In this document: positions 1 through 52,046 of the stretch, one piece after another
Numbering within the stretch: position 1 is the first letter of the stretch
Layout of the letters: each line of letters starts with the position of its first letter
Assembly (NCBI GenBank): GCA_021851405.1
Contig: JAJZDW010000003.1
Span: 1 to 64,000, forward strand
From: Pseudomonadota bacterium
GTDB lineage: Bacteria; Pseudomonadota; Gammaproteobacteria; Steroidobacterales; Steroidobacteraceae
Reading direction: 5' to 3'
Length of the DNA stretch: 64,000 bases
Made by a program: the position numbers and the translations under genes
The notes under the pieces: generated by a model
What the model saw: the letters and a program-made list of their open reading frames with translations, nothing else
Told to the model about the DNA's origin: nothing
The model's database searches: none

Positions 1-438
1 CCGCCTGGACTCGCCTGACCGCCTCGAAGCGCGCCTCTTCGAGCTTCGCGTGACTGACCTTTCGACCATCAACTCGCATCCCAGCATCATATCATAGTCT
101 CTAAGATATGTACTGCTTAGTAAGTGCCACTTTTGCCCCAAGTCTCGGACCTCACCGCGTCACCCAACCGTGCAAAAGCAGGGAAGCACCCTGGTCCGGT
201 CACTCCCGCTCAATTGTCTCCGGCAATTATAAGTACCTGAAATAACGAGACTTCAACTTAGGGTACGCCAAACTTACCGTCACATCGACCGTCAAGAACT
301 TCCGCTTGAGCGCGATAGGCGGCGATAGATGGCGAAAGGTTCAATGGGTTTTGGCAAGCCACCCGAGGCCCGAGGCGAACGTGACTTCGATCAGCTTTGT
401 GTCCGAGACGCCCCTGATGACGGGGCGAATTCGGCGAC
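1..438. other. Region without a supported gene
   Basis: This stretch precedes the pdxI stop codon. The only open frames are short, antisense or without a recognisable domain or ribosome site. Parts are AT-richer than the rest of the window. I see no RNA gene or repeat here. Confidence 0.5.
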
Positions 439-1302: not shown

Positions 1303-1371
1303 TCGTGCATCTCCATCGAGGTGGTGGTGACAAGAATGTAGGCGCTTTGCATCCGTTCGATAAGCCGCTAC

Positions 1372-1394
1372 TCTCCGCACAGGCTGTGCGGAGA
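1372..1394. promoter_or_regulatory. 10-bp perfect inverted repeat in pdxI/LysR intergenic region
   Basis: TCTCCGCACA and TGTGCGGAGA are perfect inverted arms separated by GGC. The repeat lies 8 bases before the LysR start and covers its likely ribosome site, about 70 bases upstream of pdxI. It fits an autoregulatory LysR operator. It could also form an RNA hairpin that hides the LysR ribosome site. The link to the LysR protein is inferred from position only. Confidence 0.55.
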
Positions 1395-1402
1395 ACCGAA
1401 CA

Positions 1403-2338: not shown

Positions 2339-2417
2339 CCGGGTAATTGCCAATATTGCCCAGATACTACGGGTTCACTTTCTCAGCTGACCGTGCCACA
2401 TTAGGGAAGCGCCTTGG

Positions 2418-4022
<1,605 letters not shown>

Positions 4023-4077
4023 GCCGGATGCGGCTCGGCCGCGGTTCTGGTCGGTGGTGGTGTGCAGGGCATCAGGA

Positions 4078-5544: not shown

Positions 5545-5599
5545 AGCTAATTCTACGCATCGGCAGCCCGCCGGTAAACCTCGGTGGTATGGTTCGCCC

Positions 5600-6985: not shown

Positions 6986-6990
6986 ACGTC

Positions 6991-7443
6991 GTGCCGAGCG
7001 ACATCGAGTTCATGCGCCTTGCGATCGAGCAGGCCGAGCGGGCCGGCCGCGAGGGAGAGGTGCCGGTGGGCGCGGTGCTGGTGCGGGACGAGGGAGTGCT
7101 CGCTGCGCGCGCCAATTGTCCGATCGGTGCCCACGATCCGACGGCGCATGCGGAGATCGAAGCGCTGCGCGCCGGCGGACGCGAGCTCGGCAGTTATCGC
7201 CTGACCGACACGACGCTGTACGTCACGCTCGAGCCGTGTGCGATGTGCGCTGCAGCGATCGTGCACGCACGGGTGCGCCGAGTGGTGTTCGGCGCCTGGG
7301 ATCCGAAGGCCGGGGCGGCCGGCAGCCTCCTGAATCTGTTCGCGGTGCCGGCGCTCAATCACCGAGTCGACGTGTTCGGCGGCGTACTGATGCAGGAGTG
7401 CAGCGCGCTGCTGCAGTCGTTTTTCGCTGCGCGTCGCGCCTAG
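6991..7443 (+). CDS. tadA: tRNA-adenosine(34) deaminase
   Basis: A 150-residue zinc deaminase that converts A34 to inosine in tRNA-Arg(ACG). The zinc site is His53 with catalytic Glu55 (TAHAEIEALR) and Cys83/Cys86 (EPCAMC). The tail has the TadA-typical GAWDPKAGAAGSLLNL and NHRVDVFGGVL. I chose the GTG at 6991 because GAGGAGG lies 10 bases upstream, inside the end of xseA; an in-frame ATG at 7012 is the alternative. It is probably translationally linked to xseA. Confidence 0.93.
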   Translation: MPSDIEFMRLAIEQAERAGREGEVPVGAVLVRDEGVLAARANCPIGAHDPTAHAEIEALRAGGRELGSYRLTDTTLYVTLEPCAMCAAAIVHARVRRVVFGAWDPKAGAAGSLLNLFAVPALNHRVDVFGGVLMQECSALLQSFFAARRA

Positions 7444-7452
7444 CCGCGCCGC

Positions 7453-8892
7453 TCAACTGCCGGACAGATCGGCGACCGGCGCGTTCGCATTTGCATCGGC
7501 CGTCTGCACCAGGACGCCGCTTTCGGGGGCCCACTCGAGCAGGCGCAAGAATTCACGCACGCGCGCCACGTACTCGACCGGCTGCCAGCCTTGGGCGTAG
7601 CCATATTTGGCCTGGTCGTACCAACGCGGATCGGTCAGCAGCGGCAGCACCCGCCGCACGGCCGCCCAAGAGTCGGGGTTCTTGCCCATCCGCTGGGCCA
7701 GCACGCGCGCGTCCTCGACGTGGCCGAAGCCCACGTTGTACGAGGCGATCGCGAACCAGGTGCGGTCCGGCTCCGGAATGTGTTTCGGAATCATCTCCAG
7801 GACCTGTTTGAAATAGCGCGCGCCGGCGAAAATGTTCGCCTTCGCGTCGGCCCGGTCCTCGATGCCCATCTCCTGGGCCGTATCGGACGTCAGCATCATC
7901 ACTCCGGCCGCCCCGGTGGTCGAGATGGCTGCCGGGTTCCAGCGCGACTCCTGGAAGCCGATCGCCGCGAGCAGCCGCCACTCGAGGTGGTAGCGCTCGG
8001 CAGCCGCCTCGAACCACTTGCGGTACAGCGGCAGGCGCTGCACCAGATAAATCTGGAACAGGCGCGAACGCTCGTAGGGGAAATTGCCGGTATTCCCCGA
8101 CTCGTGCTGCATCAGCGCAGTCAGCTGCCCGGTGGCGCGCAGCGTGCGAAAATAATGATTGACGGCGTGCAGCAGGTCCGGTGCATCCGGACGTACCACC
8201 CATTGGATCGGTCGCTTCTGCGGCAGCGCGAACGCCACGCGCACGTCCGGATACAAGTGGTGCGCGTACGCATAGGCGCGCCCATCGACCACGGCGTAGC
8301 CGACTTCACCTGAGGCGACGTCTTGCAGCGGCGTGTTGCCGGTCTCGGTCGCCTCCCATTGCAGGAACGGCGCGACCAGCCGCAACTGTTTGAGGACCTC
8401 GACCTGCGGGCTGTGCGCGCGGACCACCAGCTTCGCATACTGCAGCTGCGGCAGATTTTGCGGTGCCGGTTCGCCGCTGCGGTAAATCACCAGCTGCGGG
8501 ACTTCGGCATACGGTGCGGCGGGTTCGCCCACATCGCGCCAGGCGGCATCCGCGGTGATCTGGGCCGCAGCGATGTCGGCCCGCCCCGAGGCGAGTGCCG
8601 CGCGCAGCGCCCCCTCGTCGGGCACCGGGACGATCTTCAATTTCACGCCGAGATCGTGCGCGAAATCCTTCGCCAGGTCGTACTCGAGGCCGGTCGGACC
8701 CTTCGGGCCGATGTAGTAGCAGGTGGGGAGATTCAGCGTCGCGACGCGCAATTCTCCCCGGGCGCGGATCCGTTCGAGCACCGTTTGGCTGCGCGAACCG
8801 TGCGCCAGAAGTGCCAAGGCCGTGACCGCTGCCACTGTGCCCATCCTGAAGGCGGTCCGTCCGAGGCGTGCATGGATGCGTCTTCGCGCCAA
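7453..8892 (-). CDS. mltF: Membrane-bound lytic murein transglycosylase F
   Basis: A peptidoglycan-cleaving enzyme with two domains. The N-terminal part is a solute-binding-like domain (starting near GELRVATLNLPTCYYIG), and the C-terminal part is an SLT lysozyme-like domain with catalytic Glu in GFQESRWNP, followed by GVMMLTSDTAQEMGI and FAIASYNVGFGH. This order matches E. coli MltF. The start is uncertain: TTG at 8892 has GGAG seven bases upstream and gives an Arg-rich signal peptide (ARRRIHARLGR, then a hydrophobic stretch). ATG 8844 would lose the charged region, and TTG 8913 lies very close to the predicted promoters. The gene is divergent from tRNA-Ser. Confidence 0.9.
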   Translation of the reverse strand: MARRRIHARLGRTAFRMGTVAAVTALALLAHGSRSQTVLERIRARGELRVATLNLPTCYYIGPKGPTGLEYDLAKDFAHDLGVKLKIVPVPDEGALRAALASGRADIAAAQITADAAWRDVGEPAAPYAEVPQLVIYRSGEPAPQNLPQLQYAKLVVRAHSPQVEVLKQLRLVAPFLQWEATETGNTPLQDVASGEVGYAVVDGRAYAYAHHLYPDVRVAFALPQKRPIQWVVRPDAPDLLHAVNHYFRTLRATGQLTALMQHESGNTGNFPYERSRLFQIYLVQRLPLYRKWFEAAAERYHLEWRLLAAIGFQESRWNPAAISTTGAAGVMMLTSDTAQEMGIEDRADAKANIFAGARYFKQVLEMIPKHIPEPDRTWFAIASYNVGFGHVEDARVLAQRMGKNPDSWAAVRRVLPLLTDPRWYDQAKYGYAQGWQPVEYVARVREFLRLLEWAPESGVLVQTADANANAPVADLSGS

Positions 8893-8924
8893 AACCGGAC
8901 TCCACAGAGCCAAAAATATACCGC

Positions 8925-8930
8925 TATAAT
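8925..8930 (+). promoter_or_regulatory. Probable -10 element of the tRNA-Ser promoter
   Basis: A perfect TATAAT lies 14 bases before the tRNA 5' end, in an AT-rich patch between mltF and the tRNA. No convincing -35 was found. The minus strand of the same patch offers TATTAT and TATATT, which could serve mltF. Confidence 0.5.
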
Positions 8931-8944
8931 ATCACCGACCCCGG

Positions 8945-9037
8945 GGAGAGGTACCGAAGCGGTCATAACGGCGCCGACTCGAAATCGGATGGTCGGGTAA
9001 AACCGGCACGTGGGTTCGAATCCCACCCTCTCCGCCA
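8945..9037 (+). tRNA. tRNA-Ser (CGA)
   Basis: The acceptor stem GGAGAGG (8945-8951) pairs with CCTCTCC (9027-9033), followed by discriminator G and an encoded CCA (9035-9037). The anticodon loop CTCGAAA gives anticodon CGA, which reads UCG codons. A long variable arm typical of serine tRNA precedes the T arm GTGGG-TTCGAAT-CCCAC. The first pair of the anticodon stem looks mismatched. The 3' end is the attachment site of the downstream island. Confidence 0.95.
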
Positions 9038-9041
9038 GCTC
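9024..9041 (+). repeat. attL: 18-bp direct repeat at tRNA-Ser 3' end
   Basis: CACCCTCTCCGCCAGCTC covers the end of the T arm, the 3' acceptor strand, the CCA and four bases beyond. The identical 18 bases recur at 18439-18456. The integrase gene begins just inside this copy, as usual for tRNA-targeting elements. Confidence 0.88.
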
Positions 9042-9167
9042 TGTCTAGATCTGTCTGGCGGAGATGACAGAGTGTGACAAATCAGCGACTTGAGCTATTG
9101 CCTGTCCCACTGCGTCCGGCCAAGATGCCATTCCCGGCCAAGAAGTCCGCACGAAGTCCGCACGGCA

Positions 9168-10214
9168 ATGGCATCGATTACGCACTACGGCGAGGGCTGG
9201 CGGGTGCACCTGTTCGTCGCCGGCCGGCGCGAATCCCGGCTCTTCAGGCTGCGCCGGGAAGCGGAACGGTGGGCGGCGAAGCGCGAGGCTGAGCTGCGCG
9301 GTGGGGGCACCGCGCTCACCTTCGCCGAAGCCGCCGAGCGATGGCTCACCTGGCGACTACCGGGACTGAGCAACGCGAACAGCCAGCGCACGGTGGAGCA
9401 GTCGATCCGGGATTACGTACTGCCGGTGATCGGCAGCCGGCGGCTCGACGAGCTGTACCGGGCGGATCTGGTCGATGTCGTGCGGCGGGTGGCGGCGACG
9501 GGGAAAGTGGAGACCGCCCACCGGCTCGGCCAGCGCATCCGCGCCATCCTCGATCATTCCGTCGATCACGGCGATATCGAATCGCATCCCGGCGCCGGGC
9601 TCTCCCGAGTATTGCCGGCGGTGGAAAAGACTCCGATGGCGGCGGTGACGTCGGCTGAACTACCGGCGCTGATGAAGTCCATCGACCGCTACCCGGAACC
9701 CGTCACCCGCTTGGGCCTGCTGCTCTTGGCGCACACGTTCCTGCGCACGTCAGAGCTGATCGGGGCGCAATGGGCGGAGATCCGCGACCCCGAGACCTGG
9801 GTGGTCCCCGAGGAGCGCATGAAGCGGCGCATGCCGCACGTGGTGCCGCTCTCCGGGCGGGTTCGCGCGATTCTCGAGGAGCTGCGCGCGATGATGGAGG
9901 AGGAGAGTCCCTACATCCTGGCGTCGCGCCAAAATCCGCAAACCGCAATCTCGAACAACACCCTGCTGTTTGCGCTGTACCGCCTCGGGTACAAGGGTCG
10001 CATGACGGGCCACGGCTTCCGCGCGGTGGCCTCCACGGTGCTGAACGAGAGCCAGCTGTGGGGCCGGGACGCGATCGAGCGTCAGCTCGCGCACCGCGAG
10101 ACGGATCAAGTTCGCGAGGCGTACCACCGCGCCGAATATCTCGATGAGCGGCGACGGATGATGGCGTGGTGGAGCGGCTATCTGGACGAGAGCCGCTCGA
10201 GGACCCAGGCGTAG
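9168..10214 (+). CDS. Tyrosine site-specific integrase
   Basis: A 348-residue tyrosine recombinase that would integrate and excise the element at tRNA-Ser. An N-terminal arm-binding region is followed by a SAM-like core-binding domain (about 50-150). In the catalytic domain I can place Arg193 (FLRTSELIGAQW), His282 and Arg285 (GHGFRAVAST), His309 (QLAHRE) and the nucleophile Tyr319 (EAYHRAEYLDERRRMM), the P4-integrase pattern. The frame extends upstream to a TTG at 9090, but that extension has no domain similarity, so the ATG at 9168 is preferred, although no strong ribosome site is seen. Its 3' end overlaps the convergent HTH gene by 37 bases. Confidence 0.93.
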   Translation: MASITHYGEGWRVHLFVAGRRESRLFRLRREAERWAAKREAELRGGGTALTFAEAAERWLTWRLPGLSNANSQRTVEQSIRDYVLPVIGSRRLDELYRADLVDVVRRVAATGKVETAHRLGQRIRAILDHSVDHGDIESHPGAGLSRVLPAVEKTPMAAVTSAELPALMKSIDRYPEPVTRLGLLLLAHTFLRTSELIGAQWAEIRDPETWVVPEERMKRRMPHVVPLSGRVRAILEELRAMMEEESPYILASRQNPQTAISNNTLLFALYRLGYKGRMTGHGFRAVASTVLNESQLWGRDAIERQLAHRETDQVREAYHRAEYLDERRRMMAWWSGYLDESRSRTQA

Positions 10215-10402
10215 GGGATGCGGTTCGCCGCGACGACCGGCGGCTTCATTCGGCGCACCGTGCGTCCCGAGCAGCCGAGCATCTCACCCGCCTGCTCGTA
10301 GGTTACCGTGCTCGCCACGGGCCGCTGGGCGAGAGCGCGCGCGACAGCACGCTCGAGGAGCGCGGAGAGTTCCGCTTCGCTCAGTGTCACATATCGGTCC
10401 AT
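10178..10402 (-). CDS. Small HTH DNA-binding protein, excisionase-like
   Basis: A 74-residue protein with a helix-turn-helix near its centre (TYEQAGEMLGCSGRTVRRMKP) followed by a wing-like end, resembling AlpA/MerR-type excisionases that bend attachment-site DNA. It is last in a minus-strand cassette: the preceding stop TGA is one base before this ATG, and GAGGG lies seven bases upstream. An alternative ATG at 10417 adds five residues. Its location against the integrase gene supports a role as recombination directionality factor or regulator, but that is inference. Confidence 0.65.
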   Translation of the reverse strand: MDRYVTLSEAELSALLERAVARALAQRPVASTVTYEQAGEMLGCSGRTVRRMKPPVVAANRIPYAWVLERLSSR

Positions 10403-10403
10403 G

Positions 10404-10595
10404 TCAGCGGCCCTCATCGCGGTCCTGCTCGGTTTCGGCCCGGTGTTTCTCGCGAAGGTCGCCCATCAGCGTGTATGCGCTGAGCAGCTCACGGGTGCGT
10501 CCGTCCGCCTCGGCCGCATCCAACCATCGTTCCCGCTCGGTAGCATCGAGCGAGTTCCACCAAGCCGACGCCATCCGCTGATAGAGGCCGCTCAT
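10404..10595 (-). CDS. Small hypothetical protein of the mobile element
   Basis: A 63-residue charged protein (starts MSGLYQRMASAWWNSLDATERERWLDAAEADG) with no family I recognise. It is predicted to be helical and soluble, with no membrane segment. Its ATG overlaps the TGA of the upstream gene (ATGA), and its stop is one base before the next start, so the three genes are translationally coupled. The tight coupling is the main evidence that it is real. A role in excision control or mobilization is possible but unproven. Confidence 0.6.
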   Translation of the reverse strand: MSGLYQRMASAWWNSLDATERERWLDAAEADGRTRELLSAYTLMGDLREKHRAETEQDRDEGR

Positions 10596-10996
10596 GCCGC
10601 GTCCTCCACGCTGCCTTCCAGGGCTGCAATTGCGGTGCGGGCGGACTCGGTGTCCGGGCCTGCCCAGACCTTGCGGTCGCGATCCCATTTCAGTCCTGCC
10701 GCCTTCAGCGGCTCGGTGTCCGCAGGTCTGCCGGGGAATCTGGCGAGGATGCTGCCCGGAGCCGGTGGGGCTGAGGGCTTCGGCGCTGCCGCCTCAATGA
10801 CTGCTCGCACATCCGGTTCCTGATACTTGGCCGAGGTGAACACCGGCACGATCTGCTCGGGGGACAGTCCCCGACGCAGCAGACCGCGGATGTACTCGCG
10901 ATCGGCGCTCGTCAGGATGCGCCGGTCGGGCTCCAGCTCTGCGAATTGGGCGGCCAGCAATTTCTCCGCATCCGACTGCTTTCGTTTCGTTGCCAT
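10592..10996 (-). CDS. Hypothetical accessory mobilization protein
   Basis: A 134-residue protein. The N-terminal half contains LTSADREYIRGLLRRGLSPEQIVPVF, a helical segment that may bind DNA. A Pro/Ala linker follows, and the end has LKAAGLKWDRDRKVWAGP, similar to small DUF5710-like motifs found on mobile elements. It is the first gene of the minus-strand cassette and lies back to back with the relaxase across a palindrome-rich gap, the usual place of a MobC-like accessory factor. Family membership is not certain. Confidence 0.55.
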   Translation of the reverse strand: MATKRKQSDAEKLLAAQFAELEPDRRILTSADREYIRGLLRRGLSPEQIVPVFTSAKYQEPDVRAVIEAAAPKPSAPPAPGSILARFPGRPADTEPLKAAGLKWDRDRKVWAGPDTESARTAIAALEGSVEDAA

Positions 10997-11253
10997 TGCG
11001 GAATCTCCATCGCCCGCACGTTGCGGGACTCTCCCCATTCCTCCGCGGGGTGGGCCCCTTGCAGGGCGCAGCCCCTGCCTGGCTGCGGGTGCCGAGGGGA
11101 CTTGTCCCCCGGCACGCCACCGGGACCGACAGGGCCCAGAGAGGGGAATAGGGATAAGCACGGCATGTTGAAGACATGCGTAGTGCGCACTACGCATCCT
11201 GGCGGATGTGTCTGCGGCAAGGGGCAAGCCCCTGCACCCCAAGGAGATCCTTC
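10997..11253. promoter_or_regulatory. Relaxase-side intergenic region, candidate oriT
   Basis: This 257-base gap between the divergent accessory gene and the relaxase is dense in inverted repeats. One near-perfect hairpin lies at 11089-11115 (GTGCCG...CGGCAC with a GGGGAC/GTCCCC core). A 22-base perfect palindrome lies at 11176-11197. GGGGCAAGCCCC at 11221-11232 is just before the relaxase ribosome site AAGGAG (11241-11246). Origins of transfer usually lie beside the relaxase gene. The nick site cannot be assigned. Confidence 0.5.
11176..11197. repeat. 22-bp perfect palindrome
   Basis: Arms ATGCGTAGTGC and GCACTACGCAT meet with no spacer. It lies 56 bases upstream of the relaxase start. It could be an operator for the HTH protein or part of oriT. 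Confidence 0.75.
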
Positions 11254-12921
11254 ATGGCGACAAGTCGCGGGTCATCAGTGCACTTCAAGCCGTTGCACTC
11301 ACCCATGCTCTGTGAGGCGCACAACCGCCGGGCGGTGAATCCCCAGTACCTGCTGCCCGAGAAGGACCGCGAGCCCAATCTCGTCGTCAGGGACGGCGAT
11401 GTCGCGCAGGCGTACGCGCAGAAGATGGCGTTGGCCTCGGGGCGTGCGCGGGCAACCCCAAAATACAGTCCGCTGAAAGAAGGCATCGCGAACCTAGCCG
11501 ACGAGGCCCCCGAGGTCCTGCACGCGAAGATGGAGCGCTGGTGCCAGGAGTACGAGGCCATCACCGGGGAGCGCGTGGTGGCCTGCGTCATTCACCGGGA
11601 TGAGGGGCGCATCGGCGCGGACGGCACGGTGCATCGCAATGCGCATGCGCACGTCGTGGTGGATCGAACGGACGAACGCGGACGCGTGGTGAACTCGATC
11701 CCGGACGGCAAGGGCGGCACTCGGCGTACGACGATCACGGATCGCAAAGCGCAGGGTCGGCGGGTGCAGGATATGACCGCGCGCATCACGGGCCTCGCTC
11801 GGGGAGAGGACGCGCGCGAGACGAAGCGGCGGCACATCGATCATCACAGCTATCGCGCGCTCGCGCGCCAGGGCCGGTTACGGGATGTGGACCGCGAGCG
11901 AGATCTCGCACATCGCGCTGCGCGGGCGGAACAGGAATGCGATGCAGCAGCGGCTGACGCGAAGCTCAACGGCTCGCTGTACACCCAGGTGCTTCGAGAG
12001 CGCGACCGCGCGTGGACCGAGCGCGATGCCGCTAGGGCGGTTCACGCGGAGGCGCTCGCCGTGCTGCGCGAGATGGGCGCGCAGCACGGGCTGACGATCG
12101 AGCACGGCACCAAGGCTGAATACGCTGGGTTGCGTGAGGCCATGAAGGCGAGCGGGCAAGCCAGCCAGCAGGAGTATCAGCAGATCAAGGCCGCGTTCGA
12201 AGTGCTTCACGCGCGGCAGGAGGTCGAGCGTCGACGCAGAAAGCACAGGCCAGGGATCGAAGGCCCCGCGAGCGATGATGACGGGCAGGAGCACGCCCCA
12301 AAGGCGCGGTTGACACGCGAGCGCGACGAGGTGGCACGGATGACCCTCTGGAAGGACGAGACAGGTCGCGAGGTGCTGCACGTCACACGCTCGCGCGTCG
12401 AGGTTCTGGATCACAGCCGGGACGTTGAGCGCGTTGCGCTACGCATTGCCGCCCAGAAGTTCGGCGACGCCGTGTCGATCACTGGCAGCGCCGAGTTCCG
12501 GGAACGCCTGGCACGGCTCGCCACTCGAGAGGGCATTCGGGTGGTCGATGCCGATCTCGCCAGGATCGTCGAGGACGAGCGATCGCGCAGGGCGAGAGGA
12601 GAGCAGGTTACGACACCGAGCGCGGTTTCTGCTCCGCCCCACAGCGATACGCGCGCCGATCCTGCGATAGCGCAGCTCGCCCGCTGGTGGAATCCCAAGT
12701 CACGGGCCGCGCGAATGCGCGCCCTGGACGTCGCGCAGCGGGTCGGGTACGAGCGCAGCATCATGGGCGCGTGGCACGCCGCGCGGGCCGCGGCAGAACG
12801 CAAACACGCCGGGATCAGTGCCGATCAGACCGAACGCGAACGGTCCGAGGGCGAGGAGGGCCTGACTCGCATCCCGGCCTCCGCGCCCGAGCCGGACGAC
12901 GAGCAGGACTTGGGGCGGTGA
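11254..12921 (+). CDS. MOBV-like relaxase with LPD7 domain
   Basis: A 555-residue mobilization relaxase that would nick oriT and lead DNA transfer. Motif I is AHNRRAVN (residues 22-29). The metal-binding motif is HRNAHAH with His127, His131 and His133, preceded by CVIHRDEG, as in Pre/Mob (MOBV) proteins. A charged coiled-coil stretch spans about 215-340. Residues about 365-455 match the LPD7 domain (DETGREVLHVTRSRVEVLDHS, then ALRIAAQKFGDAVSITGSAEF). ATG 11254 has AAGGAG seven bases upstream. The frame upstream of it is not conserved. Confidence 0.85.
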   Translation: MATSRGSSVHFKPLHSPMLCEAHNRRAVNPQYLLPEKDREPNLVVRDGDVAQAYAQKMALASGRARATPKYSPLKEGIANLADEAPEVLHAKMERWCQEYEAITGERVVACVIHRDEGRIGADGTVHRNAHAHVVVDRTDERGRVVNSIPDGKGGTRRTTITDRKAQGRRVQDMTARITGLARGEDARETKRRHIDHHSYRALARQGRLRDVDRERDLAHRAARAEQECDAAAADAKLNGSLYTQVLRERDRAWTERDAARAVHAEALAVLREMGAQHGLTIEHGTKAEYAGLREAMKASGQASQQEYQQIKAAFEVLHARQEVERRRRKHRPGIEGPASDDDGQEHAPKARLTRERDEVARMTLWKDETGREVLHVTRSRVEVLDHSRDVERVALRIAAQKFGDAVSITGSAEFRERLARLATREGIRVVDADLARIVEDERSRRARGEQVTTPSAVSAPPHSDTRADPAIAQLARWWNPKSRAARMRALDVAQRVGYERSIMGAWHAARAAAERKHAGISADQTERERSEGEEGLTRIPASAPEPDDEQDLGR

Positions 12922-13060
12922 TTGTTCCCCTTCTCTTCAGTTCCGGGCTGACTGCGCGGATCCGAAACAATCATCGGGATTTCCCATTCTCCGTCCGTCA
13001 GAACCGTCCATCATCGACGGAGGGATAACCGCGCTGGCTCTCGCGATGCCGATCTCCGTG

Positions 13061-14005
13061 TCAATTCCCTGAGGGCAATTGCGCTCCGTGTGCGACTAGG
13101 TAGTTTCTAATGGCAAGGCCAGCAGGATCAGAGATTCGATTTTCAATAATCTGTTTCATCGTCAATCCATCTGCGTACTTGAAATTGACCGCGGCATCAA
13201 TATTCGCTCCATGCTCTACCAGTAGTCTCACGGTGGAATAATTTTCTCCACCGATTGCGAGTGCCAGGGCCGTACTACCGTCCCAAGTCTTCTGGTTCAC
13301 GTTTGCGCCCTGATTTAGCAGCATCTGCACGACGTCGTCCTCTCCTAAAGAGGCCGCCGACACCAGCGGTCCCGGTGAATTCCCCGGTTGAAGCGAATTG
13401 TTGGGTTCCGTACTCGCGCCCAGCGCCAGCAGCATCTTGATCACTCCGCGCTGGCCGGCCTGGATGGCGATGTCCAACAGCGTTTCGGAGCCGCCTTGCC
13501 CCGCCCCGGCGAGCTGCACAATGGTATCTACGGGTATTCGCTTTTGGGCGAGGATACTCTCTACTTGGTCCGCTCTTCCGTAGATAATGGCCTTCAGTAA
13601 AGGCGCCATGGTCTTTACATCACGTGCGCTATCGCCGCTCAGCCGCATCATGTTCAATGTTCCTTTGTACACCTCAGCTGGGTTCTTGATCGGTCCGTAG
13701 GCAACGGGTGAAAAACTTCTAAAGTGTTGTACAGGCACGGGGTGCGTCTGGCGCGCCGGAGGGAACGGCGGGGGACTCTTGGTGACGTTCTTGGCCGGAA
13801 GATGCGATTCGGCAGTGCGCGCGCCAGCCGGGGTACGCAACTGTGTCACAGCTCCAGTGGGATGGGGCTGACCCTTGCCGTCACGCCATTCGTGAACGTA
13901 CAGCACGATCACGACCGTCACGATAAGAACGGTCGCGGTTACCACGAAAGCTCGCCATGCCCGACGGCGCGGTTGGGGGCGCTTTGAGGAGGTCATGGTA
14001 TTCAT
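13061..14005 (-). CDS. Membrane-anchored ankyrin-repeat protein
   Basis: A 314-residue protein with a cytoplasmic Arg-rich N-terminus, one membrane helix (about 17-41, AFVVTATVLIVTVVIVLYV), a Pro-rich linker and 4-5 ankyrin repeats from about 145 to the end (SETLLDIAIQAGQRGVIKMLLALGAS, then DGSTALALAIGGENYSTVRLLVEHGANID). The topology puts the repeats in the periplasm. It follows a secreted-protein gene on the same strand with 46 bases between. Ankyrin proteins of this form can act as immunity or inhibitor proteins, so a neutralising role toward the upstream product is plausible but inferred. The block has much lower GC than its neighbours, which suggests separate acquisition. Confidence 0.8.
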   Translation of the reverse strand: MNTMTSSKRPQPRRRAWRAFVVTATVLIVTVVIVLYVHEWRDGKGQPHPTGAVTQLRTPAGARTAESHLPAKNVTKSPPPFPPARQTHPVPVQHFRSFSPVAYGPIKNPAEVYKGTLNMMRLSGDSARDVKTMAPLLKAIIYGRADQVESILAQKRIPVDTIVQLAGAGQGGSETLLDIAIQAGQRGVIKMLLALGASTEPNNSLQPGNSPGPLVSAASLGEDDVVQMLLNQGANVNQKTWDGSTALALAIGGENYSTVRLLVEHGANIDAAVNFKYADGLTMKQIIENRISDPAGLAIRNYLVAHGAQLPSGN

Positions 14006-14051
14006 GATGGGACTCTCGCGTCAGAATAGTCGTGCGTCACGGAGGTAAACA

Positions 14052-15095
14052 TTAGGAGCAGGGATTGCCTTGCGCTGGGATTTCTTTCAAACCGATGGCG
14101 AGTTCTATCGTTATGGCGTTGAATTGAAGTCGTGCGTTTCCGGTAGCAAAAAGATCGTCCGCAAATTTAAGCCAGTCTTGAAAGCTTAGGTCTTGCGTAA
14201 GCTGAGTGTTAAGGCCAATGGCGAATGCGCTATCCATTATTGCCGTCTGAACATCAGAGGGCAGGGTCATGTAGACAAAGTTACTCGCGGCATTCACTCT
14301 GCCATACCAGTAGTTGTATGCACCGCTAAACAGGACTCCGACTTGGCTCGCTGTTAGATTCGGTGGAAAGACTGCCTGTGTAGCTTGTGCTTCGGTACCA
14401 GTCGGACCATATTGGGTGCACCGTGATATCGGAACTTGAGTTCCCGGTGGAACCAGTGACTGCGTATTGTATGGCACCGTTACGGTGGTGGAAAAGCAGG
14501 CATTTAGTCCCGCACCAAGAAATGGCGCGAGCTCATTGAGCAGCTGCGTGTCTCCATTGACAATGTATGTCGCCTGTTGGTATGAAAATTGGCTCGCATC
14601 GAAACCCAGAAAAGTCAATCCAGAATTGACGCAGGGAGTATTGAAGCCACATGGAGGGACGAATCCAGTTTCATTGGTGTAGGTTTTCCCATAGTAATGT
14701 TGTGTTAATGTGGCGACTAACGGATCGGGACCTTCGTTTGTCTGGATGAATCCTTTATTGGCCCCATCCTCGGCGGTGGCGCAATGGGGATTCTTGGGGT
14801 TTGTGCTCCCCGTGCCACCGCCGCCACCACCCGTTGGCGGCGAACCACTGCCTCCACTCGGCAAAGGGCCAGTTGACGGTGGAAACCACACTTGGGGTTG
14901 GCAATACCATGGGTTGATGCCCATGGCCTCGTAGTAAGAGCAATAAGAAGCGGAGATGTTTACCCCGGGTAGCGCTTGAGCAACCGCGACGGACTGACGC
15001 CCCGGCAAGACCACGGTGCCAAGGGCGATCCCCACCGCCAAGATGGCTTGAAGCGGGAACCGCCGCAACAGAGACGCCGAATATCGTGACCGCAT
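14052..15095 (-). CDS. Secreted Cys-rich protein, possible lysozyme-like effector
   Basis: A 347-residue protein with a signal peptide (about 1-41, cleavage near AVAQA-LPG), several cysteines and a Gly/Pro/Ser linker (about 72-98). The C-terminal part from about 115 has GFVPP...NSGLTFLGFDASQ (Thr161, Asp166) and later LPSDVQTAIMDSAFAIG, a weak likeness to pesticin/T4-lysozyme-like hydrolases (SGVTIGxGFDLGQ, then a helix ending in NIG). The putative acidic residue would be Glu121 or Glu142. I cannot confirm this. It is the first gene of the low-GC pair with the ankyrin protein (sampled lines about 43% GC). Confidence 0.7.
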   Translation of the reverse strand: MRSRYSASLLRRFPLQAILAVGIALGTVVLPGRQSVAVAQALPGVNISASYCSYYEAMGINPWYCQPQVWFPPSTGPLPSGGSGSPPTGGGGGGTGSTNPKNPHCATAEDGANKGFIQTNEGPDPLVATLTQHYYGKTYTNETGFVPPCGFNTPCVNSGLTFLGFDASQFSYQQATYIVNGDTQLLNELAPFLGAGLNACFSTTVTVPYNTQSLVPPGTQVPISRCTQYGPTGTEAQATQAVFPPNLTASQVGVLFSGAYNYWYGRVNAASNFVYMTLPSDVQTAIMDSAFAIGLNTQLTQDLSFQDWLKFADDLFATGNARLQFNAITIELAIGLKEIPAQGNPCS

Positions 15096-15575
15096 ACGCC
15101 CCCCCCCTTCGCCCGCATTATTTGTTACCGAACGTCACCCGGATCTGGGCATGGCTCCTCATGACGTTCGAGCCGGCATCATCAGCAGGTCGCGCGCCCT
15201 GGGCAGTGTTACCGGGAAGCACCTTCGCCGAGACTTCCTCCCCACCACATCGCGAGCACAGCTCCCCTACGGGGCCGTTCCCACTCAGCACTCACGCGCC
15301 CGCAACGCGCCTCATGGCCCGCATCCTACCCCCACGCTGGTGCAGAGACAACCGTGCGCACAGTGGCAGTTGATGCACCGGCCCTCGTGACTCTCGCCCG
15401 TAGTCCCGCGAGCGCAGCCGCACGAGTGTTCTATTCCTCTTCCTGCCACGAGATTCTCAAACATCGCGAAAAATGCCGTTCGACCAGGCCCGGCCGCCCG
15501 CTGTTAGGCGGAAATCCGCTTCATGGTACAGGGGAGGGTTGCTGCGCACCTCAGATGGCGCCCGGGGCACTCTCT

Positions 15576-15589
15576 ACGTCAATTGACGT
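15576..15589. repeat. 14-bp perfect palindrome
   Basis: ACGTCAATTGACGT is perfectly self-complementary, standing out against GC-rich flanks. It resembles an operator for a dimeric repressor. No nearby gene start fits, so its partner is unknown. Confidence 0.55.
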
Positions 15590-15613
15590 CGCCGTGGAGG
15601 ATGGCGTTTGACC

Positions 15614-15651
15614 GTGCCACCCTGAATCTGGTCCGTCGACCGGGGTGGCAC
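15614..15651. repeat. Nested hairpin near the Rep gene
   Basis: Outer arms GTGCCACCC and GGGTGGCAC (9 bp) enclose a second small stem GGTC-CGTC-GACC. No T-run follows on either side, so it is not a standard terminator. It lies about 345 bases beyond the 3' end of the rolling-circle Rep gene and could be a replication or nicking structure. Confidence 0.5.
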
Positions 15652-15688
15652 TTGTGTAGGAAACAGCCAAGGTCAGGGCGAACAGCGC

Positions 15689-15871
15689 TCAAGATGGCTC
15701 TGGCGGGCTATCGGGTGTGCCCCGTGTCCCAGGGGACGAGGAGTCGGGGCCGTGCCCCTCGCCGGCTGCCTTGGACATTTGGGGTGCGAGTGTGAACGAT
15801 AGAGGAGCCGGCGGCTTCGCCGCCTCCGCCCGAGCCGCGGCAAGCACCGCCTGGTTCTCCGCGACGATCAT
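15689..15871 (-). CDS. Possible small hypothetical protein
   Basis: A 60-codon frame (MIVAENQAVLAAARAEAAKPPAPL...) with GC-rich third positions like the real genes nearby, downstream of and co-oriented with the Rep gene. No ribosome site and no known domain are seen, so it may be chance. Confidence 0.2.
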   Translation of the reverse strand: MIVAENQAVLAAARAEAAKPPAPLSFTLAPQMSKAAGEGHGPDSSSPGTRGTPDSPPEPS

Positions 15872-15995
15872 GGCGAGGCGAGGTCGACGGGGTAGTGGAT
15901 GTGAAGCGCGTGCGCCTCGATAGCCGCCCGTCCTCGGGGTCCTTCGTCCAGGTCTCGATCCGGGGAGATCGACGCTGAGAACGCCGTTCGTTCGG

Positions 15996-17879
15996 TCAGG
16001 AAGCGGGCGGGGGGCCGTGGGAGGGAGGCGTTTGGCCGCGCCACACCGATTTTGCCACCTCGGTCCCGGTTACAGTTATACCTGATGCAGCCAAGGCCGC
16101 CGCGGACGCGGCGGCGGAGTCTTCGGCCCTGATGAGGACCCACCGGCCGGGCTGACGCGTGGCGACGCAGATGCCGCGCCGTTCAAGCCATATGCCGACC
16201 GTCCGGCGGCGAGTGACAGCCACCACCGCCCGGCGGGTCAGGGCTGTCTCAGCCTCGCGGATCTCACGCACGGTTTCAGCATCATCGCCCGCTCGCACGA
16301 GGAGCGGCTCGATGAGATCCGCTGGCGGCGTGTCGGGGCCGTGCGGCACCCCGTGAGCGGCAGCGAGCCCGCGGAGCCGGCGCGCGGCCTCCGCCTGAGC
16401 GGCATTCACTTCGGTGTGGACTTCGGGGTCGGGGTGCCGAAACTCCCGTTTTTCGGTCACGGTTGCGATCCGCGCGCCCGTCGCCGCGGCGACACGATGG
16501 AATGCCGCGTAGTCGCCGACTCGCGCGTGTTTCGCGATGTCGCGAATCTCGGCGGGAGCGCCATCGGGAAGTTTCCGGCGCATTTCATCCCACAGCCCGA
16601 GCAATCCCTTCGCTCCGCAAATCTGGTAGCCGCGGATGCCCCACGTGCTCCGCCAGGCATCGTTGCCGTCGAGTTCGTCCCCGGTGATGCAGCGACTCAT
16701 TTTGCCGTCCGCGCACGCGGTAGTCTTGGCCGCATAGGCCATGCAATACATGCCGACAGAGGCGACATCCCGCGCGCGCTCGATGCGCACGGCCGGGCCG
16801 GCGGCGCCGAAGCAGTCGGTCAAGATCGCGGTGACCTCAGCGATGCGGCTCTCAGGCACGAACAAGGGCATGTGCCAATGCGTGCAGGCGTCTGCGTGCG
16901 GCTCGGCGTAACGCGGCGCAAGCCAATCAATCCTCGCCTTCGCAAACCTCGCCCGCGCGCGTGCCCAACACCTCACAAGGTGGGCTTGAGATGCGCGCGG
17001 GAGCGAGCCGTCCCATTTCGACTTGCCGAGCTTCGGTGCGGGGTGGAAATTCGGGGGGCAAGTCAGGGTCGTGAAATAGGGGTAAAGACCGCGCTCGGTG
17101 GCGAGTTTCGTCAAGCCGCTCGTTACCGCAAGGTGCTTGGCCCGCCTCTGTTGGGGGGTGCGCACCACCTTGGTGAGCGGGATGGCCTCGCCGGTCTCGA
17201 GGTCTACGATGAGGCTCGTATCCTTCCACTCTGCCTCTTGCTCGAGCTGTTCGCGACGGTCATGTCGCGCTCGGCGCGACGCATACTTGGCCTGTTGACC
17301 CCGCGAGCCAACGCGACCGCGCCACAACGCCTCGGCCTCGCGCGCCTGGCGCACGCACCGCCGCATGTTCCGGCGTTCGGCCCGAATCGCCTCCGTGGAA
17401 TCGACCGTGGTCCGCTCGCTGGGTTCGCGCCCATAGCGCAGTTTGAAACTCTTGGTCCAAGCCTTGCGTTGGCGCAGCCACCATAGCATCCGCCCTTGCG
17501 CGGCGCGAGAAATGTCCTCGCGGTCCCAGTCCCGATGTTTCCATCCCCATGCGGTAACCCCGGTGCGCATGATGCCGGCGAGGCGGCGCAGCGCTGCCCA
17601 CTCGGCCTCGCGGGCGTTGGCGGGCTGCTCGCCCAGGCCGACGGGGATCTCGGCCGACCATTCGGTTTCTGCCCGCCAGTGTCGATCACTGACCGGTCCC
17701 TGACCCTGATCATCAGAGGAGAGCGCCGCGTATTCGTCCCACGCCGAATCTGATAGAGTACGACCGTCGTCGTAGCCCGCGACGGTGGGATCACCTACTA
17801 CGACGCGCGCACGCGGAGGCCGGTTCGGGGTTGCTGCTTCACCCCAGCCGGCCTTACTTTCTTGCGCCCACGGGCGCAC
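15996..17879 (-). CDS. GPA-type rolling-circle replication initiator
   Basis: A 627-residue protein related to the phage P2 gene A endonuclease family. Motif I is YFTTLTCPPNFHP (about 268-280), the metal-binding HUH motif is CTHWHMPLF with His334 and His336, and the active tyrosines are Tyr378 and Tyr382 in MYCMAYAAK, the YxxxY spacing of P2 gpA. It would nick the element's origin and start single-strand displacement replication, either after excision or as a satellite-like cycle. The start is GTG 17879 with only a weak ribosome site, so the true start may be further in. C-terminal residues from about 490 are variable. Confidence 0.82.
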   Translation of the reverse strand: MRPWAQESKAGWGEAATPNRPPRARVVVGDPTVAGYDDGRTLSDSAWDEYAALSSDDQGQGPVSDRHWRAETEWSAEIPVGLGEQPANAREAEWAALRRLAGIMRTGVTAWGWKHRDWDREDISRAAQGRMLWWLRQRKAWTKSFKLRYGREPSERTTVDSTEAIRAERRNMRRCVRQAREAEALWRGRVGSRGQQAKYASRRARHDRREQLEQEAEWKDTSLIVDLETGEAIPLTKVVRTPQQRRAKHLAVTSGLTKLATERGLYPYFTTLTCPPNFHPAPKLGKSKWDGSLPRASQAHLVRCWARARARFAKARIDWLAPRYAEPHADACTHWHMPLFVPESRIAEVTAILTDCFGAAGPAVRIERARDVASVGMYCMAYAAKTTACADGKMSRCITGDELDGNDAWRSTWGIRGYQICGAKGLLGLWDEMRRKLPDGAPAEIRDIAKHARVGDYAAFHRVAAATGARIATVTEKREFRHPDPEVHTEVNAAQAEAARRLRGLAAAHGVPHGPDTPPADLIEPLLVRAGDDAETVREIREAETALTRRAVVAVTRRRTVGIWLERRGICVATRQPGRWVLIRAEDSAAASAAALAASGITVTGTEVAKSVWRGQTPPSHGPPPAS

Positions 17880-18438
17880 GACGCCGCTCGCCTACGTGGC
17901 GAGCCGCATCATCAGCGACAATTCAGATTGCGCGGACATACGGCCCTTCGCCGTGCACGCACGGCGATTTGACCGGTGAAAGTCCGCATTGCAGCAAGTC
18001 CTGACGGGCCGATGCGTTCGGCTTTTTCCGCCCCTTGAGGGGCTGCGCGCCGGGGATTTCTGGGTTCGGTTCAACCCGGCACGGCGATTTCCCTATCGCT
18101 ACTCGGTGTCATTTGCCTCGCTTCACCAGAGGTCCGATCCACGTCACCTTGTACCCGTGGAGTCAGACATGGCTGCGTGCGATCCCCGTCCTCCTGCGGT
18201 ACCTCGATCTCTATGGAAGGTTTCGCACACGACGCACCGGCGGCTGCTTCACTTCTCCGGCGCGCCCCGGAGCATACCGGGGGTTGGGTATATTCCACGT
18301 CGACGGGGCGGGAGTGTCAAGTCTCAACGGCCGTCGTAACGGTCACCGGTTCGATGGTTGGTGGTAGCGATCAGGAATTACGCACGGGCTACGCACAAGA
18401 GCGCATGTAGAACACAAAAACACGCTATTTGTGGCGGT
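17880..18438. other. Island right end, no clear gene
   Basis: This stretch upstream of the Rep gene has only short unrelated frames. It contains a small GCCCC-TTGA-GGGGC stem at 18030-18043 and two TACGCAC repeats near 18380-18400, close to the right attachment site, which might bind the integrase or HTH protein. The Rep promoter should lie here, but I could not define it. Confidence 0.4.
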
Positions 18439-18456
18439 CACCCTCTCCGCCAGCTC
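18439..18456 (+). repeat. attR: second copy of the 18-bp att repeat
   Basis: CACCCTCTCCGCCAGCTC is identical to 9024-9041. Identity stops abruptly on the right (AAAA versus TGTC), and the tRNA body is not repeated on the left. It marks the far end of the integrated element. Confidence 0.88.
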
Positions 18457-19045
18457 AAAAACAACTACAAATCAAGGGGTTGTCCCCGAGCTGTCGCTCC
18501 GATGTAACATAAAAATCCTTAAGAATCTTTTAGGTCTTGGCATGACCTGTCCGCGCGTTTGACGCGGTACCCGTGCCCGGGTGCGCCGTTGGCTCGCCCG
18601 AGGCGCGCGGTTGGCGGTGCTCGCCGCGGCCGGCGGCAGGGTGCGGCGCGGTGTGCCCCCGCGGTGTGATGAGTGGCGGTGGCCGCCGGCCGCGCGCACA
18701 CACGACAACCAACGGCATTTCTCGGAAAGGTGACGATAGAGGCGTTGCGCAAGCGTCAGGCGGTGCGTGCCGCGGTGGCTCCATTCGTCTGCTCGACGCG
18801 GCTGTTGTTCGGCCAAGAGGCGTGCTGAGCCTGCGATCCTGCGGCTGTTTCAGACTGCGCTCCATCCGCCACCGGGTCTCGCCGCAAGGGGCGCGCGCTG
18901 CCCTTCAGCCCGTACAACTCTCACGTGGCGAGCAGACGGCAGAGGTCGGCTCTCCATCACGGCGTGTTGGAGGCGATCGAGCGCTAGGGCCGCATGCGCC
19001 GCTTACGGTCGAGCCGCCTCGGCGGCGGCGCAAGCTCGGTGTCCG
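18457..19045. other. Intergenic region between island and usp gene
   Basis: This is chromosomal sequence just outside attR. It holds very GC-rich frames with no domain, and a short inverted repeat AGGTC...GACCT near 18531-18547. No gene, RNA or mobile remnant can be supported. Confidence 0.4.
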
Positions 19046-19507
19046 TCAGGACGCCGGATTGGGTGTGGCGGCGCGCACCAGCAGCACTGGCACCGAGGCA
19101 TGGCGGACGATGTACTCGGCGCTGCTGCCGAGCAGCAGGCGACTGAGGCCGTGACGGCCGTGGGTGCCGCAGACGATCAGGTCAGCCGGCCATTGCTGGG
19201 CGCGGCGCACGATGCACTCCCCGACCGGGATGCCCAGCTCCTCGAGCAACACGGTGTGAACGGTGATGCCCGCGTCGCGAACCTGTTCTTCGGCCTCCTT
19301 CAGCACTTGCGCGCCCGCCTCGCGCAGCGCCTTCGAGCCCGCATCGAGATTGACCGCTGCGATGTCACCGGCCGCGACCCGCCATTCATCGACGATGTGC
19401 AGCAGCAGGATTTGCGCGCCCTGGTCGCGCGCAAGATTGATCGCCTCGCGCAGACCCTGAGCCGCGATGGAACTGCCGTCGACGGGGACGAGGATCCGTT
19501 GGTACAT
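19046..19507 (-). CDS. Universal stress protein family (UspA fold)
   Basis: A 153-residue single-domain Usp protein beginning MYQRILVPVDGSSIAAQGLREAINLARDQGA. The ATP-binding signature GTHGRHGLSRLLLGSSAEYIVRHASVPVLLVR (G-x2-G-x9-G-S) is intact, so it probably binds ATP. Its stress role is known only by family. The frame is open to 19618, but the ATG at 19507 gives the standard start. It stands alone, divergent from the DedA/PAP2 gene. Confidence 0.9.
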   Translation of the reverse strand: MYQRILVPVDGSSIAAQGLREAINLARDQGAQILLLHIVDEWRVAAGDIAAVNLDAGSKALREAGAQVLKEAEEQVRDAGITVHTVLLEELGIPVGECIVRRAQQWPADLIVCGTHGRHGLSRLLLGSSAEYIVRHASVPVLLVRAATPNPAS

Positions 19508-19647
19508 GCTGTGCCTCTGAGGGGGTTTCGATCCGCATAGCGTACGCGCGAAATGACCGGGCGGCATCAGAGGATGCGCATCGGGACGCGGCGCGTGAAA
19601 TAATCCGGCGCCATGCAACGCGCCGCCTGTTCCTGAGTCGAATCCCC

Positions 19648-49914: not shown

Positions 49915-49976
49915 GATCTCCATCCTGCGCGAACGCGGAGCCGCAGCGCCGAGCACCGGGTGCGAACGGCGCCCGT

Positions 49977-50402: not shown

Positions 50403-50471
50403 GATGTGTCGCTCTCTGTCCTGATGACTACTGTAGCGGCTCGAATGCCCTCAACTTGAGCCGCCGCCTCG

Positions 50472-51996: not shown

Positions 51997-52046
51997 CCGG
52001 AGTCCCTGTTCGAGGCGGGTGCCTCATACCGAACCGCTCGGCATCC

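What the first reader, a model, noticed from the sequence alone, without database searches (positions are those of the whole stretch)
9024..18456. 9.4-kb integrative element in tRNA-Ser(CGA) with both a relaxase and its own rolling-circle Rep
The boundaries are exact: an 18-bp repeat from the tRNA 3' end recurs at 18439. Inside are a tyrosine integrase, an HTH protein, a MOBV-like relaxase and a P2 gpA-like HUH Rep, but no secretion or capsid genes. Two different HUH nucleases in so small an element, one for transfer and one for replication, is an unusual mix of mobilizable-element and phage-satellite parts.
Basis: partly seen in the sequence, partly recalled or inferred. Interest (0 to 1): 0.75.

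Follow-up and report, generated by a model that had tools for sequence, protein, structure and literature searches.

The report
Small conjugation-hitchhiking element in tRNA-Ser
A 9.4-kb stretch of DNA inserted in a serine tRNA gene looks like a small mobile element that makes its own DNA-nicking enzyme to hitch a ride through another element's conjugation machine, has a second phage-type enzyme to copy itself, and carries a likely bacteria-killing enzyme with its protector; the design resembles one known from streptococci, here with a different copying enzyme.

Summary
In detail: the 18-bp repeat is exact, the tRNA-Ser(CGA) is intact, relatives show the empty site, and the element has a tyrosine integrase, a relaxase and a P2-gpA-type Rep (PF05840).

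Best reading: an integrative mobilizable element (IME). New evidence is a candidate oriT, a perfect 22-bp palindrome at 11176-11197 overlapped by further inverted repeats, as in known MOBV oriTs. Its core TAGTGCG equals the published nick of the MOBV relaxase MobSag. The central 12-mer occurs 15 times in 58 genus genomes, each time just upstream of this relaxase's start. The relaxase is homologous to MOBV by profile comparison but missed by Pfam Mob_Pre. The genome has a T4SS gene cluster (possible helper); the P2 capsid family is in 0 of 41 genus genomes. A 98%-identical copy sits at another tRNA-Ser gene.

Cargo not in the finding: a pesticin-like muramidase plus a membrane-anchored ankyrin protein, probably toxin and immunity.

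Novelty is moderate. MobV relaxase plus a separate rolling-circle Rep is known in streptococcal IMEs (class 10, IMESag-rpsI), and one PF05840 IME is reported in S. suis. This is a proteobacterial variant with a P2-type Rep and an unrecognised MOBV-like clade. 'Phage-satellite parts' is not supported beyond Rep ancestry.

The parts
8945..9037 (+). tRNA-Ser(CGA), the target gene, kept intact
   Evidence: ARAGORN; Rfam RF00005, 48.6 bits
9024..9041 (+). attL, left copy of the 18-bp repeat (tRNA 3' end plus 4 nt)
18439..18456 (+). attR, right copy of the 18-bp repeat; element length 9415 bp (one att copy counted)
   Evidence: preceded by ATTTGTGGCGGT, shared by six other right ends: L054, L055, L060, L062, L078, L086
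9168..10214 (+). tyrosine integrase (ATG start; upstream TTG at 9090 also open)
   Evidence: PF00589 E 7e-16, PHROG 1 E 3e-49
10178..10417 (-). 79-aa HTH protein, possible excisionase (inference), overlaps the integrase end
   Evidence: sub-threshold HTH hits, TIGR01764 excise E 0.019; 77-99% identical in relatives
10404..10595 (-). 63-aa ORF of unknown function
   Evidence: 44-95% identical in relatives; no family hit for the longer frame 10404-10688
10592..10996 (-). 134-aa ORF divergent from the relaxase across the candidate oriT; possible relaxosome accessory protein (inference)
   Evidence: 81-97% identical in most relatives, 31% in L084, no match in L055 and L137; no family hit
11176..11197 (+). 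candidate oriT core: perfect palindrome ATGCGTAGTGCGCACTACGCAT; predicted nick after TAGTGCG; overlapped on the left by the repeat GCATGT-5-ACATGC and on the right by a weaker one
   Evidence: MobSag nick TAGTGCG/TTA and MobM nick TAGTGTG/TTA from PMC5090054 (passages)
11254..12921 (+). MOBV-like relaxase (HNRR at 23, HRDE at 114, HAH at 131) with C-terminal LPD7 domain
   Evidence: the two best Foldseek hits are relaxases but weak
13061..14005 (-). ankyrin-repeat protein with one N-terminal hydrophobic segment, likely membrane-anchored immunity protein (inference)
   Evidence: PF00023 E 3e-15; hydropathy peak at 19-37
14052..15095 (-). pesticin-like (T4-lysozyme-fold) muramidase, probably exported; E121, T161 and D166 match pesticin E178, T201 and D207
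   Evidence: profile A5 to pesticin structures E 2.6e-6; relative L080 PF16754 E 2.6e-8, over cut-off; positions and N-terminal hydrophobic stretch (no signal-peptide program was run); pesticin residues from PMC9927483 (passages)
15996..17879 (-). P2 gpA-type rolling-circle replication initiator (HxH 334-336, YxxxY 378-382; GTG start)
   Evidence: PF05840 E 2e-31, PHROG 91 E 2.5e-39, motifs invariant in 5 family members, 312 phage records matched
18251..18456 (.). conserved right-end region of the element family next to attR
   Evidence: 77-83% identity to L054, L055 and L062; also within the L060 match

Best explanation
It is an integrative mobilizable element. The integrase, probably with the 79-aa HTH protein, excises it as a circle and integrates it at the 3' end of serine tRNA genes (shown for three isoacceptors by occupied sites; excision itself inferred). 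The MOBV-like relaxase, probably with the 134-aa protein, nicks the palindrome at 11176-11197 after TAGTGCG and is carried with the strand through a helper T4SS, such as the one encoded in the same genome (inferred). The P2-type Rep replicates the excised circle by rolling circle so that it is not lost before transfer or re-integration (inferred from family). The middle segment carries swappable, fast-diverging cargo, here a pesticin-like muramidase and an ankyrin protein that probably protects the carrier (inferred).
For: Exact att repeats and empty sites. Occupied tRNA-Ser genes of three isoacceptors, CGA, GGA and TGA. 97.9% identity over 7387 bp with a copy at a tRNA-Ser(TGA) gene. Candidate oriT: 15 of 15 places of TAGTGCGCACTA in 58 genus genomes lie 62-103 bp upstream of a relaxase start, against 7 places for the reversed control pattern; palindrome arms change in step in L084 and in L087-L091; an overlapping left inverted repeat in 13 of 13 copies and a right one in 12 of 13, like the three overlapping repeats of MOBV oriTs (PMC5090054, PMC5863519, passages); core identical to the mapped MobSag nick. 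Relaxase profile against 9 MobV/Mob_Pre proteins: probability 93.1, E 3e-7, or 97.3, E 2e-11 with three plasmid relatives added; controls 0.0-3.7. Of 6 right ends with neighbouring sequence, 5 have an open Rep and 1 a remnant. T4SS genes in own genome. P2 capsid in 0 of 41 genomes. Cargo: muramidase and ankyrin genes together in 6 of 6.
Against: No circle, nick, transfer or replication was observed. Pfam Mob_Pre does not recognise the relaxase; one profile-to-single-sequence comparison was weak (probability 7.8); Foldseek gave no hit at E <= 0.001. The oriT region does not fold unusually well as single-stranded DNA (z -1.26), and the right-hand repeat of the window copy (5-bp arms) is no better than chance (195 of 500 shuffles reach it). 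The genus genomes used are draft assemblies, and the 19 records of the genome-contig scan are all titled MAG, so binning errors are possible; bin G069 holds two copies at tRNA-Ser(TGA) genes with different upstream sequence. That this T4SS is the helper is untested. Several relaxase-bearing contigs show no Rep in the stretch examined (for example G006:C35 and G069:C112).
Confidence: 0.78

Rival explanations
1. Phage satellite: the P2-type Rep makes concatemers or circles that a helper phage packages; the relaxase is passenger or remnant.
For: Rep belongs to the P2/HP1 initiator family; size and tRNA target resemble satellites (recalled).
Against: No capsid, terminase or packaging gene among the 8 ORFs scanned; P2 capsid family 0 of 41 genus genomes, the only helper type tested; relaxase motifs and the oriT palindrome are conserved together across the family, which suggests selection on the relaxase; no confirmed relative of the relaxase in viral contigs (pattern-based scan).
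Confidence: 0.06
2. The Rep is the working relaxase (as a PF05840 'relaxase' is proposed for an S. suis IME) and the MOBV-like protein is accessory or idle.
For: PMC12479173 calls a PF05840 protein an IME relaxase (passages); rolling-circle initiator relatives serve as relaxases in some ICEs (PMC5704250 passages).
Against: The MOBV-like protein keeps all catalytic motifs and a MOBV-type nick palindrome directly upstream; in two complete elements the Rep is less conserved (47% and 51%) than the relaxase (81% and 79%), though in L059 and L060 the Rep is 88-89% identical.
Confidence: 0.08
3. A dead island: once mobile, now fixed in this genome.
For: A second copy in the same genome (C30) has lost most of its Rep, and other copies are broken, for example L061 and L066.
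Against: In the window copy all main reading frames are open and the att repeats are exact; a copy 97.9% identical over 7.4 kb sits at another tRNA gene, so movement was recent.
Confidence: 0.08

Closest known systems
Streptococcal IME class 10 / IMESag-rpsI (MobV relaxase plus Rep_trans; PMC5357655, PMC5704250, PMC5090054, passages)
   Same: Small element with a tyrosine integrase, MobV relaxase with oriT just upstream, a separate rolling-circle Rep, and no T4SS or coupling protein; oriT with overlapping inverted repeats; nick core TAGTGCG identical to MobSag's
   Different: Rep is P2 gpA type (PF05840), not Rep_trans; relaxase is a distant MOBV-like clade with an LPD7 tail; target is tRNA-Ser; host is a proteobacterium, by record titles probably a gammaproteobacterium; the base after the predicted nick is C, not T
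S. suis IME with a PF05840 'relaxase' in guaA (PMC12479173, two passages seen)
   Same: PF05840 protein inside an IME
   Different: There the PF05840 protein is named as the relaxase; here a separate MOBV-like relaxase is present
SGI1 family (abstract starts in listings, and passages of PMC5704250)
   Same: Mobilizable island with its own replication initiator
   Different: Larger (42.4 kb), different integration target (trmE), theta-type Rep, mobilization proteins MpsA/MpsB
P2-like phages (Rep relatives in HP1, F108, PSP3)
   Same: gpA-type initiator with HxH and YxxxY motifs (motifs recalled for P2)
   Different: No structural or packaging genes found here
Pesticin and VgrG3cp (PMC9927483, passages)
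   Same: Pesticin-type muramidase domain with the E/T/D catalytic set; an immunity gene lies beside it in VgrG3cp
   Different: An N-terminal hydrophobic stretch in place of a VgrG part; the partner is an ankyrin-repeat protein

Membership tests
Integrative mobilizable element | Own integrase and exact att repeats at a specific site, with empty sites in relatives | tested here: met
Integrative mobilizable element | Own relaxase and/or oriT | tested here: met
   by sequence only:
Integrative mobilizable element | No mating-pore genes or coupling protein of its own (canonical kind) | tested here: met
   8 ORFs scanned, none found
Integrative mobilizable element | Excision and transfer by a helper | not testable with these tools
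   T4SS genes exist in the genome, but function is untested
MOBV relaxases | HNxR motif and HxDE...HxH motif (motif names recalled; seen in the 9 MobV/Mob_Pre proteins with variations) | tested here: met
   H23, R26, H114, D116, E117, H131, H133 invariant in 15 sequences and in an 8-sequence set that includes a Mob_Pre protein
MOBV relaxases | Profile homology to MobV proteins | tested here: met
   hhalign probability 93.1 and 97.3, controls 0.0, 0.1 and 3.7; single-sequence comparison weak
MOBV relaxases | Recognised by Pfam Mob_Pre PF01076 | tested here: not met
   no hit; it is therefore called MOBV-like, a distant clade
MOBV relaxases | TAGTG[TC]G nick within overlapping inverted repeats upstream of the gene | tested here: met
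   sequence only:
P2 gpA-type Rep (PF05840) | Family score over cut-off, HxH and YxxxY | tested here: met
   109.6 bits against cut-off 31.4; motifs
Phage satellite | Packaging, capsid-remodelling or terminase genes, or a helper phage | tested here: not met
   none in the 8 ORFs scanned; P2 capsid 0 of 41 genomes. Only one helper type was tested
Pesticin-type muramidase | Pesticin domain and catalytic E/T/D | tested here: met
   profile E 2.6e-6; E121, T161, D166. The window protein alone gives no Pfam hit; of three relatives scanned one is over the PF16754 cut-off, one under it (20.7 bits) and one has no hit

The most novel reading that the evidence does not exclude
A dual-mode hitcher: the same element uses its MOBV-like relaxase to leave by conjugation and its P2-type Rep to make packageable DNA for a phage, so it could switch between two unrelated kinds of helper.
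Probability: 0.06. Interest if true: 0.8.

Novelty: new variant of a known kind. Interest (0 to 1): 0.47.

Why it matters
The PMC5704250 review (2017, passages) states that no IME then described in Proteobacteria was of the canonical kind (own canonical relaxase, no coupling protein or T4SS). This is a clear candidate, with a defined insertion site, a candidate oriT and a candidate helper in the same cell. The relaxase clade escapes Pfam Mob_Pre, and 24 of 29 plasmids with distant relatives are typed non-mobilizable by MOB-suite (five of the 29 hits are to the C-terminal LPD7 part only), so mobile elements and plasmids with it may be under-counted. Two separate HUH-type enzymes allow a direct test of whether replication and transfer of an IME can be uncoupled. 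The cargo adds a candidate ankyrin immunity protein for a pesticin-type muramidase.

Tried and rejected
Phage satellite: looked for the P2 capsid family in 41 genomes (0 hits) and relaxase relatives in viral contigs (none confirmed); rejected as the main reading. Rep as the only relaxase: kept as a rival. MOBV by Pfam: no hit, then tested by profile comparison. Relaxase structure: pLDDT 70, pTM 0.36; Foldseek best hits TraI of pKM101 (E 0.015) and 4ht4 (E 0.025, which I recall as a Staphylococcus plasmid relaxase), none at E <= 0.001, so only weakly supportive. Rep structure: pLDDT 52, not used. Single-strand folding of the oriT region: z -1.26, uninformative. Promoter and terminator scan: no excess over shuffles. 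Rfam: only the tRNA. Muramidase homologues in viral contigs, plasmids and phages: none. PADLOC, 6 of the 8 ORFs given: matches only to the ankyrin protein. Relaxase beyond the genus: 1 of 369 class genomes, own only (the first look scored at most 3 candidates per genome, so a soft negative); among 60 relatives 16 genomes matched, one of them outside the genus and weak (E 9e-4). G023:C83 (L067) was dropped as a clean empty site because it has a run of N and a second att-like copy; G008:C169 and G028:C104 were dropped because the contigs end at the tRNA. L086 was left out of the right-end count because its contig begins about 115 bases before that end.

Literature searches. PMC5863519, PMC5090054, PMC5704250, PMC11389934, PMC3218068, PMC5357655, PMC12479173 and PMC9927483 were read as passages only; the others were seen in listings only. 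None of these listings or passages was seen to describe a MOBV-like relaxase together with a PF05840 Rep; the library lacks most subscription papers.
Full report
OBSERVATION. The 18-bp repeat is real and exact (9024-9041 and 18439-18456) and occurs only twice in the 3.52-Mb own genome as held. The left copy lies at the 3' end of an intact tRNA-Ser(CGA), 8945-9037. The element is 9415 bp long, counting one att copy. Six same-genus loci beside the same flanking gene were fetched to look for an empty site. G024:C163 and G006:C33 show a continuous empty site whose right flank begins like the window's right flank. G036:C29 has the tRNA and left flank but a right flank that does not align well. G023:C83 has a run of N and a second att-like copy and is not counted as clean. 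G008:C169 and G028:C104 end at the tRNA.

CONTENT. Integrase (9168-10214), a 79-aa HTH protein, 63-aa and 134-aa ORFs, relaxase (11254-12921), ankyrin protein (13061-14005), muramidase-like protein (14052-15095), Rep (15996-17879). Family results: integrase PF00589/PF22022; Rep PF05840 at 109.6 bits and PHROG 91; relaxase only LPD7 over its cut-off; ankyrin repeats; the other four without a family over its cut-off.

A FAMILY OF ELEMENTS. The left module (integrase to relaxase) recurs in other genomes of the same genus, mostly at 77-98% protein identity, the 63-aa ORF lower, and several copies broken or cut by contig ends. Occupied tRNAs called by ARAGORN are CGA (window, L053, L077/L135), GGA (L056, L057, L061, L066) and TGA (L073, L078, L137). 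Three complete elements have both ends, relaxase and Rep on one contig: the window, G003:C71 (23.2 kb, enlarged at least partly by transposase genes) and L078 (11.1 kb). Six right ends have neighbouring sequence (window, L054, L055, L060, L062, L078); five have an open Rep beside them and one, the second copy in the own genome (C30), has only Rep remnants. Against this, G006:C35 and G069:C112 show a relaxase without a Rep or right end in the sequence examined, and several other contigs end too soon to tell. In 369 class genomes only the own genome matched the relaxase profile (soft negative).

RECENT MOVEMENT. L073 is 97.9% identical to the window over 7387 bp: 99.2-100% in all nine 500-bp steps from 11945 to 16444, but 88-97% over the first 2 kb and 95-99% in the next 1 kb, so the integrase end has recombined or diverged. 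It sits at a tRNA-Ser(TGA) with unrelated upstream sequence. The protein of the gene beside the window's tRNA is 68% identical in genome G069 (that copy holds one stop), the genome whose contig C35 has the same length and hits as L073. Caveat: bin G069 has a second copy at another tRNA-Ser(TGA) context, so L073 might be mis-binned; the change of tRNA gene stands regardless.

RELAXASE. H23-N-x-R26, H114-x-D116-E117 and H131-x-H133 are conserved in 15 family sequences (L084 has D in place of N24). Twenty-nine plasmid records hold distant relatives. Three that I looked at share the motifs: two annotated 'mobilization protein' (L127, L128) and one ORF without annotation (L129, Helicobacter). Profile comparison with nine MobV/Mob_Pre proteins gives probability 93.1 (E 3e-7) for 13 genus sequences alone and 97.3 (E 2e-11) with the three plasmid relatives added; controls were MOBQ 3.7 and reversed sequences 0.0 and 0.1. 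These E-values are for single comparisons. Results against: no Pfam Mob_Pre hit, a weak comparison with one Mob_Pre protein, and weak Foldseek hits. I call it MOBV-like.

CANDIDATE oriT. Between the divergent 134-aa ORF and the relaxase lies the perfect palindrome ATGCGTAGTGCGCACTACGCAT (11176-11197). It is identical in 12 of 13 aligned family copies, and L085 differs by one base. The central 12-mer was searched in 58 genus genomes: 15 places in 9 genomes, against 7 places for the reversed pattern. All 15 lie upstream of a relaxase start, 14 at 62-65 bp and one at 103 bp (L085 stands for G020:C133; some of these relaxase genes are broken or cut by a contig end). Other subfamilies keep a palindrome with changed arms: L084 ATGCTTAGTGCGCACTAAGCAT; L087 and L088 CATGTCCTTAGTGCGCATTAAGGACATG; L089-L091 with TTAATGCGCATTAA; L086 has none of this kind. 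A second inverted repeat (arms of 6-7 bp, GCATGT.../...ACATGC) overlaps the left arm by 3-4 nt in 13 of 13 copies, and a third overlaps the right arm in 12 of 13 (arms of 5-7 bp). Shuffled flanks reach the left arm in 4, 0 and 3 of 500 trials for the three copies tested and the right arm in 195, 15 and 15 of 500, so the right repeat of the window copy by itself is not beyond chance. MOBV oriTs of pMV158 and IMESag-rpsI have three overlapping inverted repeats that, for pMV158, can form mutually exclusive hairpins (PMC5863519, PMC5090054, passages). PMC5090054 gives the nick sites TAGTGTG/TTA for MobM and TAGTGCG/TTA for MobSag; the seven bases before the MobSag nick are identical here, and the base after it differs (C, not T).

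HELPERS. The own genome has on contig C67 a VirB-type gene cluster: VirB4 (PF03135 E 3e-40), a VirB11-like ATPase (PF00437 E 1e-26), two VirD4-like proteins (PF10412 E 2e-89 and 8e-91) and a MobA/MobL relaxase (PF03389 E 9e-53); the other VirB genes are named by order and reading only. VirB4 family: 27 of 41 genus genomes; VirD4 family: 31 of 41. P2 capsid family: 0 of 41, with E. coli ringing as control. That this T4SS moves the element is inference.

REP. The best relatives are replication proteins of P2/HP1-like phages (312 phage records) and, on 57 plasmid records, proteins that in all 30 listed rows are annotated 'replication endonuclease'. In the 60 rows listed identity is 25-31% over 35-52% of the protein. 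HxH (334-336) and YxxxY (378-382) are invariant in five family members. Rolling-circle maintenance of the excised circle follows from the family and was not shown.

CARGO. The protein at 14052-15095 is pesticin-like: a profile of four relatives matches pesticin structures at E 2.6e-6. Of three relatives scanned, L080 passes the PF16754 cut-off, L081 is under it and L059 has no hit; the window protein alone does not hit. E121, T161 and D166 fit the catalytic set given for pesticin in PMC9927483 (passages; positions). In 58 genomes six copies were found, in contigs that carry genes of this element family, each with an ankyrin-protein gene on the same strand; in G006:C35 a resolvase gene lies between them. 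Apart from L073, cargo identity is 28-38% while the backbone is mostly 77-98%, as expected of a diversifying toxin-immunity pair. The immunity role is inferred from pairing, hydrophobic anchor and precedent.

COMPARISON AND NOVELTY. PMC5357655 (passages) describes 10 of 144 streptococcal IMEs with both a MobV and a Rep_trans protein and proposes one for transfer and one for replication. PMC5704250 (passages) says that known canonical IMEs did not include proteobacterial ones in 2017. PMC12479173 (passages) reports one S. suis IME with a PF05840 'relaxase'. The logic is thus known; the proteobacterial setting, the P2-type Rep beside a MOBV-like relaxase and the unrecognised relaxase clade are new as far as these searches show.

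Noticed in passing
L086, L088, L091 (also L087, L089, L090): A second element family: integrase 36-39% identical where seen, related LPD7 relaxase; L086 carries HlyD and C39-peptidase ABC exporter genes, L087 and L088 similar ones by eye. L088 and L091 lie at tRNA-Ser genes; the family's left-end sequence directly follows a right end of the window's family in L060, L062 and L086 (tandem accretion).
   Followed up: partly
G000:C30 (L055) 1-8930: Second, degraded copy of the element family in the own genome; Rep reduced to fragments; another att-like site follows at 9961.
   Followed up: partly
G000:C67 (L124) 6500-20000: T4SS cluster with two VirD4-like proteins near each other and a MobA/MobL relaxase; paired VirD4 matches on one contig recur in many genus genomes.
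   Followed up: partly
L078 15463-16491: LPD7-domain protein whose N-terminus resembles a transposase helper protein (by eye): an apparent fusion of a relaxase tail with an insertion-sequence gene.
   Followed up: no
L056/L081 (G006:C35): Resolvase/recombinase genes inserted in the cargo; the muramidase frame now begins with a recombinase-like N-terminus (by eye).
   Followed up: no
G069 (L073/L136 and L137): Two family copies at tRNA-Ser(TGA) genes with different upstream sequence in one bin: two tRNA genes or a binning error.
   Followed up: no
window 49540-63999: Flagellar structural gene cluster by reading of the predicted proteins; looks ordinary.
   Followed up: no
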